Part shown: piece after piece, positions 2,834 to 8,337 of the stretch | How positions within the stretch are numbered: position 1 is the first letter of the stretch | Layout: each line of letters starts with the position of its first letter | DNA from: an uncultured cyanobacterium | Lineage (GTDB): Bacteria > Cyanobacteriota > Cyanobacteriia > PCC-6307 > Cyanobiaceae | Direction of reading: 5' to 3' | DNA: 12,075 bases | NCBI GenBank assembly: GCA_903831165.1 | Contig: CAIKWV010000222.1 | Location: 1-12,075, forward strand | The notes under the pieces: generated by a model | Databases searched by the model: none | Told to the model about the DNA's origin: nothing | What the model saw: only the letters and a program-made list of their open reading frames with translations | Program-made: the position numbers and the translations under genes

Positions 2834-3346
2834 TCAGTCCGCCTGGGGACGGCCGCAGAGATGCAGGGTGTAGGACTCGATTGTGAAGCCGGTCAGGGCT
2901 TCGATCTGCTGGAGCAGCTCCGCCGGCAGGGTCACGTCCAGATCCTGGATGGTGCCGGACTGGCTGCAGGTGAGATGGCTGTGGGGATCGGCCCGGTAGC
3001 CGTAGAGGCGCCCGCTGGCCCGGTCCAGGCACTCGATCACGCCGGCGGATTGCAGGGCTTCAAGGTTCTGGTAGACGGAGGTGTGGCCGATGTTGCGGCC
3101 CTGATCGTTGAGCTTTTCAAAAATATCGCGGGCGCTGAGATGGCTCTTTTCCGCCCACAGCAGATCCAGCACCATGCGCCGTTGGCGGCTCAGGCGCATG
3201 CCCAATTCGCGGCAGCGGCGATACACGTCATCGACGTTCTGCCACCGGCCCGCAGCCATGGGCTGGGCCTGCCCAGGCCGATCGCCAGACGCGGCGAACG
3301 CCGGCTCGCGCTCAGGGCGATGGCTGGGGACCGAGGTGGTGGCCAT
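2834..3346 (-). CDS. perR: Fur-family transcriptional regulator, FurC/PerR type
   Basis: This is a cytosolic Fur-family repressor. The core from about residue 37 (residue 1 at ATG 3346), with RRCRELGMRLSRQRRMVLDL, HLSARDIFEKLNDQGRNIGH and TSVYQNLEALQSAGVIECLD, closely resembles Anabaena FurC, the PerR-type peroxide sensor. The winged helix spans about 43-108, with IGHTSVYQNLEAL as recognition helix. The metal-sensing region reads DPHSH (about 120-124) with a later Asp in IQDLDV. Both CxxC zinc motifs of classic Fur are missing: only single cysteines remain in HLTC and LHLCG, as in FurC proteins that lack the structural zinc site. Expected targets are peroxide defence and metal genes, perhaps including its own promoter. 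ATG 3346 gives 170 aa; GTG 3352 or ATG 3259 (139 aa, closer to typical family length) are alternatives, and none has a clear Shine-Dalgarno. A TATAAC box 32-37 bases upstream fits the long form. The perR label is by similarity; a Zur or other Fur role cannot be excluded. Confidence 0.85.
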   Translation of the reverse strand: MATTSVPSHRPEREPAFAASGDRPGQAQPMAAGRWQNVDDVYRRCRELGMRLSRQRRMVLDLLWAEKSHLSARDIFEKLNDQGRNIGHTSVYQNLEALQSAGVIECLDRASGRLYGYRADPHSHLTCSQSGTIQDLDVTLPAELLQQIEALTGFTIESYTLHLCGRPQAD

Positions 3347-3377
3347 CGCCACGCGAATCAGCTGTGGGGGTTCTCTG

Positions 3378-3484: not shown

Positions 3485-4246
3485 TCAGGCCACGGGCTGA
3501 TTCATGGGGTCCTGCAGCCGCTGTGGGCCGATCGCCTGAAGGGCCTCGGCCAGATCGACGCGACCGTCATAGAGGGCGCGGCCCACGATCACCCCCTCCA
3601 CCCCCAGGGGCGCCAGGCTCAGCAAGGACAGCAGGTCGGCCAGATCGCCGATGCCACCGGAGGCGATCACCGGAATCGAGCTGGCCTGGGCCATGGTGCG
3701 CAGAAAGTCCAGATTCGGCCCCGCCAGGGTGCCGTCGGTGGCGATGTCGGTGGTGATCAGGGCGGCGACGGCTGAGCCCTCAAAACTGCTGGCCAGGGCG
3801 CTGGCTTCCACCGTGCTGGCTTCGATCCAGCCCCGCGTCGCCACGCGTCCCTCCTTGGCATCGATGCCGACCACGATGCGGCCGGGATGGCGCTCGGCCA
3901 GGTCGCGCACCAGCTCGGGATGTTCCACCGCCACCGTGCCGAGAATCACCCGGTCCAGTCCACAGGCCAGCAGGGCTTCGGCCCGTTCGGCACTGCGCAC
4001 GCCGCCCCCCAGCTGCACCGGAATCGAGAGGGCCGCCGTGATCTGCCGGATCACCGCATCGTTGATCGGCAGGCCGGTTCGAGCGCCATCGAGGTCCACC
4101 AGGTGCAGGCGCTGGGCTCCCTGCCCCTGCCAGGCCAGGGCCTGGGCCACGGGGTCGTCGCTGAAACGGGTGACCTGGTCGTAATCCCCCTGGTGCAACC
4201 TGACGCATTGGCCGTCAAGTAAATCAATGGCGGGAATGACATCCAT
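3485..4246 (-). CDS. hisA: Phosphoribosylformimino-5-aminoimidazole carboxamide ribotide isomerase (ProFAR isomerase)
   Basis: HisA is the cytosolic (beta/alpha)8-barrel enzyme for the fourth step of histidine synthesis, an Amadori rearrangement of ProFAR to PRFAR. The 253-residue length fits the family. It opens with the classic MDVIPAIDLLDGQCVRL, carrying the catalytic base D8. The general-acid Asp is D129 in VVGIDAKEG. The phosphate-binding loops are LGGGVR (79-84) and ASGGIG (195-200), and the closing strand is VIVGRALYDG (219-228). DIATDGTL (167-174) is also typical of HisA rather than HisF. The start is ATG 4246 and the family motif begins at residue 2, so no upstream extension is needed. 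No Shine-Dalgarno is obvious. No other his gene is adjacent, as usual in cyanobacteria, where his genes are scattered. It faces an exported-protein gene across an 86-base divergent spacer. Confidence 0.98.
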   Translation of the reverse strand: MDVIPAIDLLDGQCVRLHQGDYDQVTRFSDDPVAQALAWQGQGAQRLHLVDLDGARTGLPINDAVIRQITAALSIPVQLGGGVRSAERAEALLACGLDRVILGTVAVEHPELVRDLAERHPGRIVVGIDAKEGRVATRGWIEASTVEASALASSFEGSAVAALITTDIATDGTLAGPNLDFLRTMAQASSIPVIASGGIGDLADLLSLLSLAPLGVEGVIVGRALYDGRVDLAEALQAIGPQRLQDPMNQPVA

Positions 4247-4332: not shown

Positions 4333-4986
4333 ATGGCTCCTTCCTTTCGCTGGCTGTCCCTTGCGGCCTTGAGCGCCTTGGGTCCATGGCTGGTGACCAC
4401 GGCCGCCCAGGCCCAGTTGGGCGCCGGTGGCCCTGACCCCAGGCTGGAAGCCGCCTTGCGCGCCCGGCTGTTTGATGGACCCTCCCCCGCCGTCGTGGCG
4501 CCCGCTGCCGATCTCGACAGCTCGGAGTGGGAACAGGCCCGGGCGGCTGGTCAGCATCCCGATTGCGCCGATGTGGGCCCCCTGCGCTATCTGGTTCGCC
4601 GGGCGGATCTCGACGGCGATGGCCGAGCCGAGCAGCTGGCCCTGGTGGTGGGCTCCTACGCCTGTGGCAGCCGTGGCTGCACCCTGATGATCTTCCAGGA
4701 GGGCAGGGAAGCGCTGGAGTTGGTGGCTGAAAGTGGGCTGTTTCAATCTCCTCTGTATCGGCTCGGCGGCCGCCATGGCGGCTGGAGTGACCTGGGCATG
4801 GCCGGCAGCCGCGATGGAGTCGCCAGTGGCTGGCTTGAATTGGAGTTCGATGGCCAGACCTACAGGCCGGCGGCCCGGCTGCCTCTGGCGCCCCCCGGCG
4901 CTGCGGTGGCCTCCCAAGCGCTGTTGAGCCTGCCGCCCCTGCCCTTCGAACGGGTGGGCCATCCGTTGGCCTGTCGAGCCCGTTGA
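4333..4986 (+). CDS. Small exported protein with DxDxDG motif and CGxxGC motif, function unknown
   Basis: I do not recognise a named family. The 217-residue product begins with a signal peptide (hydrophobic LSLAALSALGPWLVTTAA, probable AQA|Q cleavage near residue 27) and has no lipobox cysteine, so a periplasmic location is likely. The mature centre holds RRADLDGDGRAEQLALVVGS (89-108), an FG-GAP or EF-hand-like Asp-rich calcium-type loop, followed at once by YACGSRGCTLMIFQ (109-122) with cysteines C111 and C116. This pairing recurs in bacterial exported hypothetical proteins and suggests one beta-rich domain with a disulfide or metal site. Two more cysteines (C78, C214) could form a second disulfide. 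The start is ATG 4333, with the signal peptide beginning directly at residue 1. It diverges from hisA and ends 21 bases before the stop of the convergent cellulose-synthase-like gene. Confidence 0.7.
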   Translation: MAPSFRWLSLAALSALGPWLVTTAAQAQLGAGGPDPRLEAALRARLFDGPSPAVVAPAADLDSSEWEQARAAGQHPDCADVGPLRYLVRRADLDGDGRAEQLALVVGSYACGSRGCTLMIFQEGREALELVAESGLFQSPLYRLGGRHGGWSDLGMAGSRDGVASGWLELEFDGQTYRPAARLPLAPPGAAVASQALLSLPPLPFERVGHPLACRAR

Positions 4987-5007: not shown

Positions 5008-7263
5008 TCAGTAGCGCCGCACCACCGGATTGGCCCCCCAGAGACCGCCCAACAGGCTGAAGAAGGCATTGATGGCGCCGATCTGCCTGGCTTTGGGCAG
5101 GTCCACGCCGCCGCCGTAGAGGAGCTTGAGCAAGTCGCCGGTGGTGGAGGCATCCAGGGGGGCGTAGCGAAGGGCGACCCGGATCGCATTGCCCTGGCCC
5201 AGGCGACGCACCACTTCGACCGGCAACCGCAGATTCGTGTCCTCGAGCAGGAGCCAGCCTTGGTCTTCGCTGGGGGCCGGTACGCCGGGGTTGAGTTGGA
5301 ACGCCGCCCCCGATTCCGACAGATCACAGGTGAATCCGCCGCCGCGGAAGCTGCCCAGCACCAGATGGCCAGAACGCTGGATCGGCACCCGATCGCCTTG
5401 GCGGCGTACGGGTTGATCGATCGCACAGATCAGGCAGACGATCATCAACCAGCCGTTGTGGAGATTCCAGAGCAACATCAACGTCTCGCCCAGATAGCCC
5501 GGGTTGAGCAGGGGGTTGAAGCCCGGCACCAGGGGCAGGATGTAACGCAACAGCAGGATCGTGATCAGTTCGCCGAGACCCAGCAGGAATGGCCAGGCCA
5601 GACTGAGATTGATCGATTGATCGGGCTGAAGCACCGTTGTCGACCGGCTTGGAGGCCGCCGCCGGCCGCTGTTGACGAGCGTGGTGTACAGCCGCTCGAT
5701 GGCCGCCACCGACGTCAGAGTTTCGGAGACTTCTTTCCAGAAGCGTGAGAAGTGCTGGTCGGTCAGCCAGGCGGGCAAGGTGTGCAGCAGGATGATCAGA
5801 GGCACGCCGTAGATCAGGTAGTCGCTCAACGTGGCCTGAATCAGCGGGATGCCCAACAGCAGGGCCAGCATCGGCAGCACGATGAAACTCAGGCGCAGCA
5901 GGGGCGTCAGTTGATCCAGCAGCTGGCTGAGGCGATAACCCGTCCTCAGGGGCGCCAGACCCTTGCCCGCCGGCGCGGTGCCCCCATCAAGGGCGATCTG
6001 CAGTTGCGCTTGGCGATGGTCGATCTGTTGACGCAGGAAGTCCGTGAACGTGCGTGGCGCCTCGCCGATGCTGAGGATTTCGTCGAGGTAAACGATCGTG
6101 TTGCCCTGGCGTTGCAGCCTGGCGGCTCCGAGACTCTCCCAGCCGCCGGAATCGGGGCTTGTGGACTGGAGCATGGTCCGCAGGGCCTGGCGGCGCACCA
6201 GATAGCTGCCCTCACAGCCCTGGACGCTGTTGAAGCGATCGAGCACCACCTCGCCATAGTGAAAAAAGATGTCGCGATCGCCCGGCATCACCTGATCGGC
6301 GCCGAGGTTGCGGTTATAGAACTCTGAGCGGAAATGGGTCAGGGGTGTCTGCACCATGGCTACCCGCTGATCGCTGAAAAAGCCCGTGGTGCGCCGCAGA
6401 AAGTTGGCAAAGGGCATGTAACCGCTGTCGAACACCGCCACCAGTTCGCTGCTGCCTGCCTCGATCGCGGCCAGGACCAGAGGGTCGGCTGCCTGGCCCA
6501 CAAAAGAGACGGCACTGGAAGGCTCGACATAGCGTGCACCCATGGATTCGGCCAGGCTGCGCACGGAATCACGGCCGACGCGATCGACCACGCTGATTGT
6601 TGTTTCCGAATAGTCGATGTTGCTGCAGGCGATCAGGGCGCGGCGAATCAGTCGCTGCTCCTCATGGCCGGTGAGGATCAGGATGTCCACACTGGGTCGA
6701 TCATCCACTCCCGCAATTGCCAACTGGTCGGCCTGGCGCCGCCGCCGCCAGGGGTCGAACAGTGGCGATGGAACCAGGGCCAGTCCCTGAATGAAGAGAT
6801 AGAGAATCTCCACCGCCAGCATCAGGGCACCGCAGCTGAAACCCAGCGAGGATCGATGGTCCAGGGTGCCGCCGCGCCAGTGCAGATAGCGCAAGGTCGT
6901 GGCCGCCAGGATCAACAGCATCAGCACCGTGCTCCAGGGGCGGCGGGGCAGCACGGCCACCACCAACGCCAGGGCCACGGCGATGGCGCTCGGACCCAGC
7001 AGGGCCAGCCAGGAGATCGATTCACCTTGGCCTGACTGCAGGAACAGGACGGCTAACCCATCGCCGATGCCGCGATCGAAGGAGACGTGCTCTGGACGAT
7101 CCAGAACCAGGACGACCAGCAACAGACCCAGGCAGGCCGCCAGAATCCACTGCCAACGGGGTGGCCGCTGAAACGACCTGGGGGCCCTGGAATCCGGCTC
7201 GGGAAGCGGCATTTCAGCCTGGTTGGGGGCAGATGTAGGGCTTGACGCTGTCGAGCGGCTCAC
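5008..7263 (-). CDS. Cellulose-synthase-like (BcsA-type) membrane protein with degenerate GT2 domain and PilZ domain
   Basis: The 751-residue product has BcsA architecture. Four N-terminal membrane helices (about 37-55, 84-106, 109-127, 140-163) precede a cytosolic GT2-like domain (about 188-425), four more helices (455-475, 480-500, 553-580, 591-614), and a C-terminal PilZ domain (617-700). GT2 landmarks align by context: PSVDILILT, the ISVVD strand, AVFDS, VQTP, RNL, LVRRQAL and LDEILSIGEAPRTFTDFL. Key catalytic residues are changed. The UDP-binding DDG reads DRVG (227-230), the DxD reads FDSG (278-281), the TED catalytic base is absent around GGWESL (373-378), and QxxRW reads QQIDH (412-416). 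The PilZ c-di-GMP motifs look intact: RxxxR at R621-R625 and DxSxxG at D647-G652. It therefore looks like a c-di-GMP-binding pseudo-glycosyltransferase (inference); automated annotation would likely call it cellulose synthase. The start is GTG 7263, as an in-frame TAG lies 15 bases upstream; M18 (ATG 7212) is an alternative. No bcsB or other polysaccharide gene is adjacent. Confidence 0.85.
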   Translation of the reverse strand: MSRSTASSPTSAPNQAEMPLPEPDSRAPRSFQRPPRWQWILAACLGLLLVVLVLDRPEHVSFDRGIGDGLAVLFLQSGQGESISWLALLGPSAIAVALALVVAVLPRRPWSTVLMLLILAATTLRYLHWRGGTLDHRSSLGFSCGALMLAVEILYLFIQGLALVPSPLFDPWRRRRQADQLAIAGVDDRPSVDILILTGHEEQRLIRRALIACSNIDYSETTISVVDRVGRDSVRSLAESMGARYVEPSSAVSFVGQAADPLVLAAIEAGSSELVAVFDSGYMPFANFLRRTTGFFSDQRVAMVQTPLTHFRSEFYNRNLGADQVMPGDRDIFFHYGEVVLDRFNSVQGCEGSYLVRRQALRTMLQSTSPDSGGWESLGAARLQRQGNTIVYLDEILSIGEAPRTFTDFLRQQIDHRQAQLQIALDGGTAPAGKGLAPLRTGYRLSQLLDQLTPLLRLSFIVLPMLALLLGIPLIQATLSDYLIYGVPLIILLHTLPAWLTDQHFSRFWKEVSETLTSVAAIERLYTTLVNSGRRRPPSRSTTVLQPDQSINLSLAWPFLLGLGELITILLLRYILPLVPGFNPLLNPGYLGETLMLLWNLHNGWLMIVCLICAIDQPVRRQGDRVPIQRSGHLVLGSFRGGGFTCDLSESGAAFQLNPGVPAPSEDQGWLLLEDTNLRLPVEVVRRLGQGNAIRVALRYAPLDASTTGDLLKLLYGGGVDLPKARQIGAINAFFSLLGGLWGANPVVRRY

Positions 7264-7416
7264 CGTCCCCAGTGCTACTCAAGGAACCCCTTGTCTGGAA
7301 GCTTCTGCATGTGATCGTTGACGTTTGCGGGCCGGTCCCCGCTCCGCTCGGGCCTCAGGGTCAGCTCGGGGATCCGCTCCAGGCGTTTGAATGGCCCGGC
7401 ACGGTTGGTCTGGCTG
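7264..7416. other. Divergent spacer between the cellulose-synthase-like gene and the CSP41-like gene
   Basis: This 153-base spacer must hold both divergent promoters. A TTGACG at 7318-7323 (plus) resembles a -35, but no matching -10 follows at 16-18 bases. I see no riboswitch-like or terminator structure. The epimerase ATG at 7417 has no evident Shine-Dalgarno. Confidence 0.35.
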
Positions 7417-8337
7417 ATGAAGATCCTGGTGATGGGCGGCACTCGCTTCGTCGGGCGACCCCTGGTCGACCACCTGCTGACGGCGGGACACGCGCTGACC
7501 CTGTTCACCCGCGGCCGCCAGCCGCTGCCGGATGGGGTGGAACATCTGGCGGGGGATCGCAGCAGTGATGAAGGGCTCACGGCGCTCGCCGGCCGCCATT
7601 TCGATGTCATCGTTGACAGCTCCGGCCGCAGCCTCGACGACAGCCGGCGGGTGATCGAGCGCACCGGCGCCCCCAGCCATCGTTTCGTCTACGTCAGTTC
7701 CGCCGGTGTCTACGCCGACAGCGAACTCTGGCCCCTGGATGAGGAGTCGCCGACCGATCCCGCCAGCCGCCACGCCGGCAAGGCCGAGACCGAAGCCTGG
7801 CTGCGCCAGCAGGGGATTCCGTTCACCAGTTTTCGTCCCACCTACATCGTGGGTCCCGGCAACTACAACCCGATCGAGAGCTGGTTCTTCGATCGCATCG
7901 TCCATGGCCGGCCGCTGCCGTTGCCCGGCGATGGCAGCACCATCACCCAGCTGGGCCATGTGGCCGATCTGGCGGCGGCGATGGCCCGCTGCATCGAGGT
8001 GGAGGCGGCCACCAACCGCGTCTACAACTGCACCGGAGCCAAGGGCGTGACCTTCCGCGGCCTGGTGGCGGCGGCGGCCCGGGCCTGCGGCCGCGATCCC
8101 GGCAGCGTCGAGATCCGCAGCTTTGATCCGGCGGGCCTGGATAAGAAAGCTCGCAAGGCCTTTCCGTTGCGGTTGGCCCATTTCCTCACCGACATCCAGC
8201 GGGTGCGTCGGGAGCTGGCTTGGGAACCGGCCTACGACCTGGAGGCCACCCTGGCCGACAGTTTCCAGAACGATTACAGCCAGAAGCCTCCGGGGCAGCC
8301 TGATTTCTCGGCCGATGATGCGCTGCTGGCTGGCTGA
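7417..8337 (+). CDS. NAD-dependent epimerase/dehydratase family protein, CSP41 (chloroplast stem-loop RNA-binding protein)-like
   Basis: The 306-residue product closely resembles plant plastid CSP41b and its cyanobacterial homologues. These are atypical short-chain dehydrogenase proteins that bind or cleave stem-loop RNA and support plastid transcript stability. Features in order are a Rossmann start MKILVMGGTRFVGRPLVDHL (1-20), TLFTRG (28-33), VYVSSAGVYADS (91-102), RPTYIVGPGNYNPIESWFFD (140-159), a QLGHVADLA stretch (178-186), an AFPLRLAHF segment (248-256) and a DFSADDALL tail (297-304). The extended-SDR YxxxK motif is not kept: the equivalent RHAGK (118-122) lacks the Tyr, as in CSP41, so epimerase activity is doubtful. 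ATG 7417 was chosen because the Rossmann motif starts there; the open frame extends upstream only through non-conserved sequence from a TTG. It converges on the phosphatidyltransferase gene across 24 bases. A true nucleotide-sugar epimerase is the main alternative. Confidence 0.88.
   Translation: MKILVMGGTRFVGRPLVDHLLTAGHALTLFTRGRQPLPDGVEHLAGDRSSDEGLTALAGRHFDVIVDSSGRSLDDSRRVIERTGAPSHRFVYVSSAGVYADSELWPLDEESPTDPASRHAGKAETEAWLRQQGIPFTSFRPTYIVGPGNYNPIESWFFDRIVHGRPLPLPGDGSTITQLGHVADLAAAMARCIEVEAATNRVYNCTGAKGVTFRGLVAAAARACGRDPGSVEIRSFDPAGLDKKARKAFPLRLAHFLTDIQRVRRELAWEPAYDLEATLADSFQNDYSQKPPGQPDFSADDALLAG

What the first reader, a model, noticed from the sequence alone, without database searches (positions are those of the whole stretch)
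5008..7263. BcsA-like protein with ruined catalytic core but intact PilZ c-di-GMP motif
Fold landmarks and BcsA topology (4 TM, GT2, 4 TM, PilZ) are clear. However, DDG reads DRVG, DxD reads DSG, TED is missing near GGWESL, QxxRW reads QQIDH, and I find no FxVTxK gating loop in about 530-550. The PilZ RxxxR (621-625) and DxSxxG (647-652) are intact. This suggests a membrane pseudo-glycosyltransferase that senses c-di-GMP without making polymer. It may be a regulatory or scaffold partner of an active synthase elsewhere, or a new kind of c-di-GMP-gated membrane protein.
Basis: partly seen in the sequence, partly recalled or inferred. Interest (0 to 1): 0.72.

Follow-up and report, generated by a model that had tools for sequence, protein, structure and literature searches.

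The report
Inactive cellulose-synthase-like c-di-GMP sensor candidate
Some Cyanobium-like cyanobacteria keep a relative of the cellulose-making enzyme that has lost residues needed to make polymer but has kept the residues that read the signal molecule c-di-GMP, so it looks like an enzyme turned into a membrane signal receptor.

The parts
5008..7263 (-). pseudo-BcsA gene, 751 aa from GTG 7263; alternative start ATG 7212 (Met18, 734 aa) favoured by relatives
6700..7161 (-). N-terminal membrane part (residues about 35-188), helices 36-54, 85-104, 109-132, 139-163 and a 173-184 helix
   Evidence: secondary structure
5989..6699 (-). GT2-fold core, residues 189-425; 27 of 80 intact-conserved columns lost in groups I and II, among them 197, 199, 228, 248, 257, 259, 261, 262, 264, 281, 370, 375, 376, 413, 416
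6574..6585 (-). D227-R-V-G230 in place of the DDG motif
6421..6429 (-). D279-S-G281 in place of DxD
6136..6144 (-). G374-W375-E376 in place of TED (Glu at the catalytic Asp position)
6016..6030 (-). Q412-Q-I-D-H416 in place of QxxRW
5413..5988 (-). C-terminal membrane helices and interface helix, residues 426-617; the gating-loop stretch (about 532-547) lacks FxVTxK
5104..5412 (-). PilZ domain, residues 618-720 (PF07238, 34.7 bits)
5389..5403 (-). RxxxR motif R621-QGD-R625, intact
5308..5325 (-). DxSxxG motif D647-L-S649-E-S-G652, intact
5011..5103 (-). C-terminal helix and tail ending WGANPVVRRY (residues 721-751), the region with the highest mean identity in groups I+II

Best explanation
A BcsA-type synthase gene in an ancestor of these cyanobacteria lost polymer-making chemistry and was kept as a membrane c-di-GMP receptor. 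Shown by sequence: donor, metal and acceptor residues and the gating motif are lost, the PilZ motifs are kept, the predicted fold is that of BcsA, and the protein is under purifying selection. Inferred mechanism: c-di-GMP binds R621/R625 and D647/S649/G652. In active BcsA this frees the gating loop over the active site. Here no gating motif is left, so the PilZ movement would instead change the surface of the GT-like platform, the interface helices and the conserved C-terminal tail, and so switch binding of a partner protein. The partner is not identified. In 4 of 7 carrier genomes (two of them 64% and 88% complete) no other BcsA-like protein was found, so the output there is probably not cellulose synthesis.
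For: D228, K259, N262, D281, E375, D376 and W416 are lost in 28 of 28 group I+II rows, and R621, R625, D647, S649 and G652 kept in 28 of 28. BcsA fold. dN/dS 0.149, 0.206 and 0.254 for three carrier pairs; GT region 0.11-0.24. GT/PilZ divergence ratio 1.16 [0.91-1.50] in 27 dead rows against 0.42 [0.33-0.53] in 12 intact rows. 71 positions fixed in groups I+II (95% or more) and rare in group IV (10% or less). Single clade with 100/100 support, stem 0.62. Adjacent HlyD gene: 0 of 7 dead copies, 22 of 22 intact copies of the same family. c-di-GMP is probably made: 16 GGDEF matches in G000, 12 to 31 in the six other carriers (activity not judged).
Against: No binding, activity or phenotype data. 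D227 and Q412 are kept in 28 of 28 rows, D279 is D or E in 27 of 28, and Glu376 is found in 27 of 28, which could mean residual or altered catalysis. Five of 8 group I rows keep the Arg of QxxRW. The interval of the GT/PilZ ratio includes 1, and pairwise dN/dS is not lower in PilZ than in GT in two of three pairs (0.201 against 0.161; 0.288 against 0.242; third pair 0.100 against 0.112), so the GT core is about as constrained as PilZ. Sister group III (4 rows, 3 distinct) keeps ED of TED but has lost R621 of RxxxR, so within the clade PilZ is not always the part preserved. No candidate partner lies beside it: hisA and the epimerase lie there in genomes without it too.
Confidence: 0.65

Rival explanations
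1. It is still a glycosyltransferase with altered chemistry: Glu376 acts as base, D227 and D279 hold the nucleotide, and the donor or acceptor differs. In group II, Arg281 could replace the metal (metal-free GT-A enzymes that use basic residues are recalled, not tested).
For: D227 in 28 of 28, Glu376 in 27 of 28, Q412 in 28 of 28 and R281 in 20 of 20 group II rows; purifying selection on the GT region, dN/dS 0.11-0.24.
Against: D281 becomes Gly in 8 of 8 group I rows with no basic replacement there; K259, N262 and W416 are lost in 28 of 28, V539 and K542 of the gating motif in 28 of 28 and T540 in 26 of 28; P0010 has Gln at 376; no exporter partner beside it.
Confidence: 0.17
2. It is a subunit of a heteromeric synthase: this protein senses c-di-GMP for a catalytic BcsA-like paralogue that itself has a weak PilZ.
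For: Three of 7 carriers (G019, G029, G035) hold an intact paralogue 58-69% identical to P0038; PilZ of P0038 falls below the Pfam cut-off (15.9 against 22.5 bits).
Against: No such paralogue was found in G011 (98%) and G015 (99%), nor in the less complete G000 and G007. Nineteen of 35 genus genomes without the pseudo-synthase have a second-tier match of similar score (97-118 bits; not classified further), so there is no sign of association.
Confidence: 0.1
3. It is a decaying pseudogene that happens to be still open.
For: Catalytic motifs are lost; long stem branch of 0.62; dN/dS higher than that of intact relatives (0.15-0.25 in three pairs against 0.06-0.11 in three).
Against: No stop inside in any of the 7 carrier genomes; long invariant blocks in 21 proteins; dN/dS well below 1.
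Confidence: 0.03

Closest known systems
BcsA, c-di-GMP-activated cellulose synthase (PDB 4p00, 9fmz)
   Same: Fold over most of its length, TM order, C-terminal PilZ with RxxxR and DxSxxG
   Different: DDG, DxD, TED, QxxRW and FxVTxK are altered or lost
Cyanobacterial XcsA (Tll0007 type) with HlyD-like XcsB and an endoglucanase (review PMC12430437, passages read)
   Same: PilZ-bearing BcsA relative in cyanobacteria; its intact relatives in the same family sit beside an HlyD gene (22 of 22)
   Different: The window gene stands alone between an epimerase and hisA, with no HlyD within 1,500 bases, and lacks catalytic residues
Romboutsia RiGT2 mixed-linkage glucan synthase (PMC10374906, passages read)
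   Same: GT2 plus PilZ with RxxxR and D/NxSxxG
   Different: RiGT2 keeps D, D, D, QxxRW and FNVTLK and makes polymer in yeast
BgsA of Sinorhizobium (PMC5567048, search listing with start of abstract only)
   Same: BcsA-like, c-di-GMP responsive
   Different: The reverse arrangement: active enzyme without a predictable c-di-GMP domain

Membership tests
UDP-forming cellulose synthase (BcsA/CelA, TIGR03030) | score above the curated cut-off of 699 bits | tested here: not met
   155 bits
UDP-forming cellulose synthase (BcsA/CelA, TIGR03030) | D, D, D, QxxRW catalytic motifs | tested here: not met
   D228, D281, D376 and W416 changed in 28 of 28 group I+II rows; D227 and Q412 kept in 28 of 28
UDP-forming cellulose synthase (BcsA/CelA, TIGR03030) | FxVTxK gating loop | tested here: not met
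   V539 and K542 columns lost in 28 of 28 rows (one gap), T540 in 26 of 28; the alignment has gaps here
UDP-forming cellulose synthase (BcsA/CelA, TIGR03030) | BcsA fold over GT, membrane and PilZ parts | tested here: met
UDP-forming cellulose synthase (BcsA/CelA, TIGR03030) | polymer synthesis from UDP-glucose | not testable with these tools
   needs an enzyme assay
UDP-forming cellulose synthase (BcsA/CelA, TIGR03030) | BcsB partner | not tested
   the BcsB family was not searched in the genomes
Xcs system (XcsA with HlyD-like XcsB) | HlyD-like XcsB gene adjacent or in the genome | tested here: not met
   0 of 7 carriers within 1,500 bases; genome search with one XcsB-like query: no match in 6 of 7 (two of these incomplete), one 25% match at E 3.7e-4 in G011
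PilZ c-di-GMP receptors (PF07238) | domain above cut-off, with RxxxR and DxSxxG | tested here: met
   34.7 bits against 22.5; motifs in 28 of 28 group I+II rows; group III has lost R621
PilZ c-di-GMP receptors (PF07238) | binds c-di-GMP | not testable with these tools
   needs a binding assay

The most novel reading that the evidence does not exclude
A lineage of cyanobacteria converted a whole cellulose synthase into a membrane c-di-GMP receptor. It is the only BcsA-like protein found in some of its genomes, where the GT core and membrane bundle serve as a c-di-GMP-switched platform for another process rather than for making polymer.
Probability: 0.5. Interest if true: 0.76.

Novelty: new variant of a known kind. 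Interest (0 to 1): 0.6.

Why it matters
BcsA is a textbook c-di-GMP-gated enzyme. A conserved relative in which the sensor outlives the chemistry would show that the regulatory half can be reused as a membrane receptor, and would give a natural way to study how PilZ movement is passed on without catalysis. The clade holds a graded series (group III keeps ED of TED, groups I and II do not), so the order of loss can be studied. Four dead members carry a source's name 'cellulose synthase (UDP-forming)' (P0008, P0018, P0022, P0029), which would mispredict cellulose production.

Tried and rejected
Decay or sequencing error: rejected by conservation in 28 rows and by dN/dS. Intact catalytic residues placed elsewhere by a better alignment: rejected, since flanking conserved blocks (QTP, RNLG, YLDE) fix the register and intact relatives align there; the gating-loop stretch is aligned with gaps and is less certain. 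General partner of an active BcsA: rejected for the two most complete group I genomes. Pseudo-synthase versus intact PilZ operon in the genus: 7 of 42 genomes have the first, 11 of 42 the second, none both (the identity of the groups); no inference drawn, as the genomes are related. The context of the nearest intact rows P0033 and P0034 was not read (no locus). Plasmids: 443 records matched, none at 60% identity or more; the 10 listed are E. coli bcsA. The genome-contig scan gave 3 loci, on contigs of the same lengths and with the same identities as those of G007, G011 and G015.

Literature: searches (20 listed of 157; 20 of 198; 18 of 18) aimed at an inactive or degenerate BcsA or glycosyltransferase; others (20 of 161; 12 of 539; 12 of 18) at PilZ or c-di-GMP in cyanobacteria; no title or abstract start listed reports a catalytically dead PilZ-bearing BcsA. 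Passages were read in PMC12430437, PMC4594306, PMC10374906 and PMC4849487 and the outline of PMC10237404. The library lacks most subscription papers, so this is weak evidence of novelty.

Limits: one search scored only the 7,996 candidates sharing most words; one search scored at most two candidates a genome. P0041 is a distant GT2 (43 bits) with QRFKY and was left out of the intact set. The tree warns that long branches meet between the dead clade and other rows. In one search, ORFs over 800 aa (L008, L028, L030) were cut to their last 800 residues. Left out of the 28-row counts: P0002 (the window's own protein), L002, L003 and L005 (near-copies of P0004, P0006 and P0018 in the tree), L004 (same motifs as P0009) and the fragment P0030; the four L rows show the same losses and PilZ motifs. 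P0031 and L006 are the same protein apart from the start. For the GT/PilZ ratio P0029 (530 aa) was also left out, and the 12 intact rows omit L008 and L085-L095. HlyD adjacency was counted in the family only; outside it, two stretches (L049, L050) have an HlyD of the same cluster next to the synthase and one (L051) does not. YN00 failed for many pairs, which stopped with an error; NG86 values are quoted, and dS of 0.82 for G000-G007 is near saturation.

Full report
What is there. The window is contig C222 of a 64% complete genome in 640 contigs. Named relatives are MAG records titled LacPavin, JR-MC and Umea and proteins labelled Cyanobium. The finding's gene runs on the minus strand, 7263 to 5008, 751 codons without a stop. 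Twelve of the 20 other rows of alignment A2 begin at its Met18, so ATG 7212 is a likely start. It lies alone: upstream is a divergent epimerase (7318-8337), downstream an unknown 217-aa ORF (4333-4986, +), then hisA (3485-4246) and a Fur-family gene (2834-3352).

Check of the observation. All motif readings were confirmed by alignment with intact relatives. The near intact set typically reads PTYNE, LDDG, HRKAGN, FDCD, (I/V/L)ED-Q, QRLRW and a loop ending (L/I)VT-x-K; the window reads ILTGHE, VDRVG, GQAADP, FDSG, WES, QQIDH and no loop motif. Roles from papers: the second Asp of DxD is expected to act through the metal on the diphosphate, the TED Asp is the predicted base, and the QxxRW Trp stacks on the acceptor sugar (PMC10374906, passages; PMC4849487, passages). 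These are lost here, with Glu376 at the base position. The two PilZ Args contact c-di-GMP in BcsA, and one of them lets go of a salt bridge that holds the gating loop at rest; both Args are present.

Is it conserved. Of the 40 proteins (P0002-P0032) are dead by motif and fall in three groups; P0033-P0040 have the catalytic motifs. Group I has 8 counted rows (window included; 69% identity or more), group II 20 (about 53-61%) and group III 4 (3 distinct, 42-46%). In groups I and II together D228, K259, N262, D281, E375, D376 and W416 are lost in 28 of 28; R621, R625, D647, S649 and G652 are kept in 28 of 28. Against a simple story: D227 and Q412 are kept in 28 of 28, five group I rows keep the Arg of QxxRW, and position 376 is Glu in 27 of 28. 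Group III keeps ED of TED but has changed R621 to Gln in 4 of 4 rows. Of 116 columns conserved in 27 intact rows, groups I and II both lost 27 of 80 in the GT core, 7 of 18 in the C-terminal membrane part, 1 of 9 in PilZ and 2 of 9 in the N-terminal part.

Selection. NG86 dN/dS is 0.149 (G015-G011), 0.206 (G000-G007) and 0.254 (G035-G029), against 0.06-0.11 in three intact pairs and 0.10-0.11 in two hisA pairs. The GT core diverges 0.42 times as much as PilZ in 12 intact rows [0.33-0.53], but 1.16 times [0.91-1.50] in 27 dead rows; group III is between (0.70). So the GT core has lost its special protection and PilZ and GT are now about equally constrained; region-wise dN/dS shows PilZ lower than GT in only one of three pairs. 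Mean identity in groups I+II is highest in the C-terminal tail (0.79) and PilZ (0.73-0.74), whereas in 12 intact rows it is highest in GT (0.86) and lowest in PilZ (0.65).

Origin. In the tree (43 rows) groups I, II and III form one clade with 100/100 support, nested among intact PilZ-bearing synthases, P0034 and P0033 being the nearest intact rows. One conversion explains the data. The tool warned that long branches meet here, so the exact nearest intact row is unsure.

Genome setting. All 7 carriers among the 42 genomes of the genus have the gene between the epimerase and hisA. In 19 of 20 genus genomes without it whose hisA was examined, the epimerase lies within 1,500 bases of hisA and the gene is not there; in one (L072) the flank ended too soon. 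Intact relatives lie elsewhere, each next to an HlyD-type gene: 22 of 22 copies in the family, against 0 of 7 dead ones. By clustering, the gene beyond HlyD is the same one in 12 of 14 wider stretches of intact copies (not in L046 and L051), and it is a GH10 hydrolase where annotated (L042). This resembles the published XcsA-XcsB-endoglucanase arrangement (PMC12430437, passages). In a family-wide draw of 400 genomes 28 had a match at E 1e-60 or better; the 10 outside the genus have intact catalytic motifs as far as their frames run (L095 stops before the gating loop).

Is there an active partner. With an intact paralogue (P0038) as query, G019, G029 and G035 have one; none was found in G000 (64%), G007 (88%), G011 (98%) and G015 (99%). 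So a partner synthase of the BcsA kind is not the general explanation. c-di-GMP itself is probably made: 16 GGDEF matches in G000. G000 has two PilZ matches, this gene and a 151-aa frame.

Reading. The sequence evidence for loss of canonical synthase chemistry is strong; the step to 'receptor' rests on the kept PilZ motifs, the shift in relative constraint and the missing export partner; the output is inferred and its partner unknown. The main rival is an enzyme with changed chemistry.

Noticed in passing
P0036, P0038; L093, L094: The reverse case: intact GT motifs with a weak PilZ. P0036 and P0038 score 15.9 bits against the PilZ cut-off of 22.5; L093 and L094 have both PilZ motifs changed while keeping LDDG, DCD, ED and QRLRW.
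   Followed up: partly
L006, L007, P0031, P0032: Group III has lost catalysis but also the first Arg of RxxxR (R621 to Gln in 4 of 4 rows, 3 distinct), so its c-di-GMP binding is doubtful.
   Followed up: partly
window 4333-4986 (+): 217-aa ORF with no Pfam match; tblastn matches beside hisA in 13 of 20 genus genomes, plus a partial one in L072.
   Followed up: partly
L046 8326-11786: G003 has a second synthase-HlyD pair, intact by motif (L085), a few genes from the epimerase neighbourhood where the dead gene sits in other genomes.
   Followed up: no
L042 10592-15242: The intact synthase region reads NAD-dependent DNA ligase - GH10 - HlyD - synthase; GH10 rather than the GH8 usual beside bacterial cellulose synthases (GH8 is recalled).
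   Followed up: no
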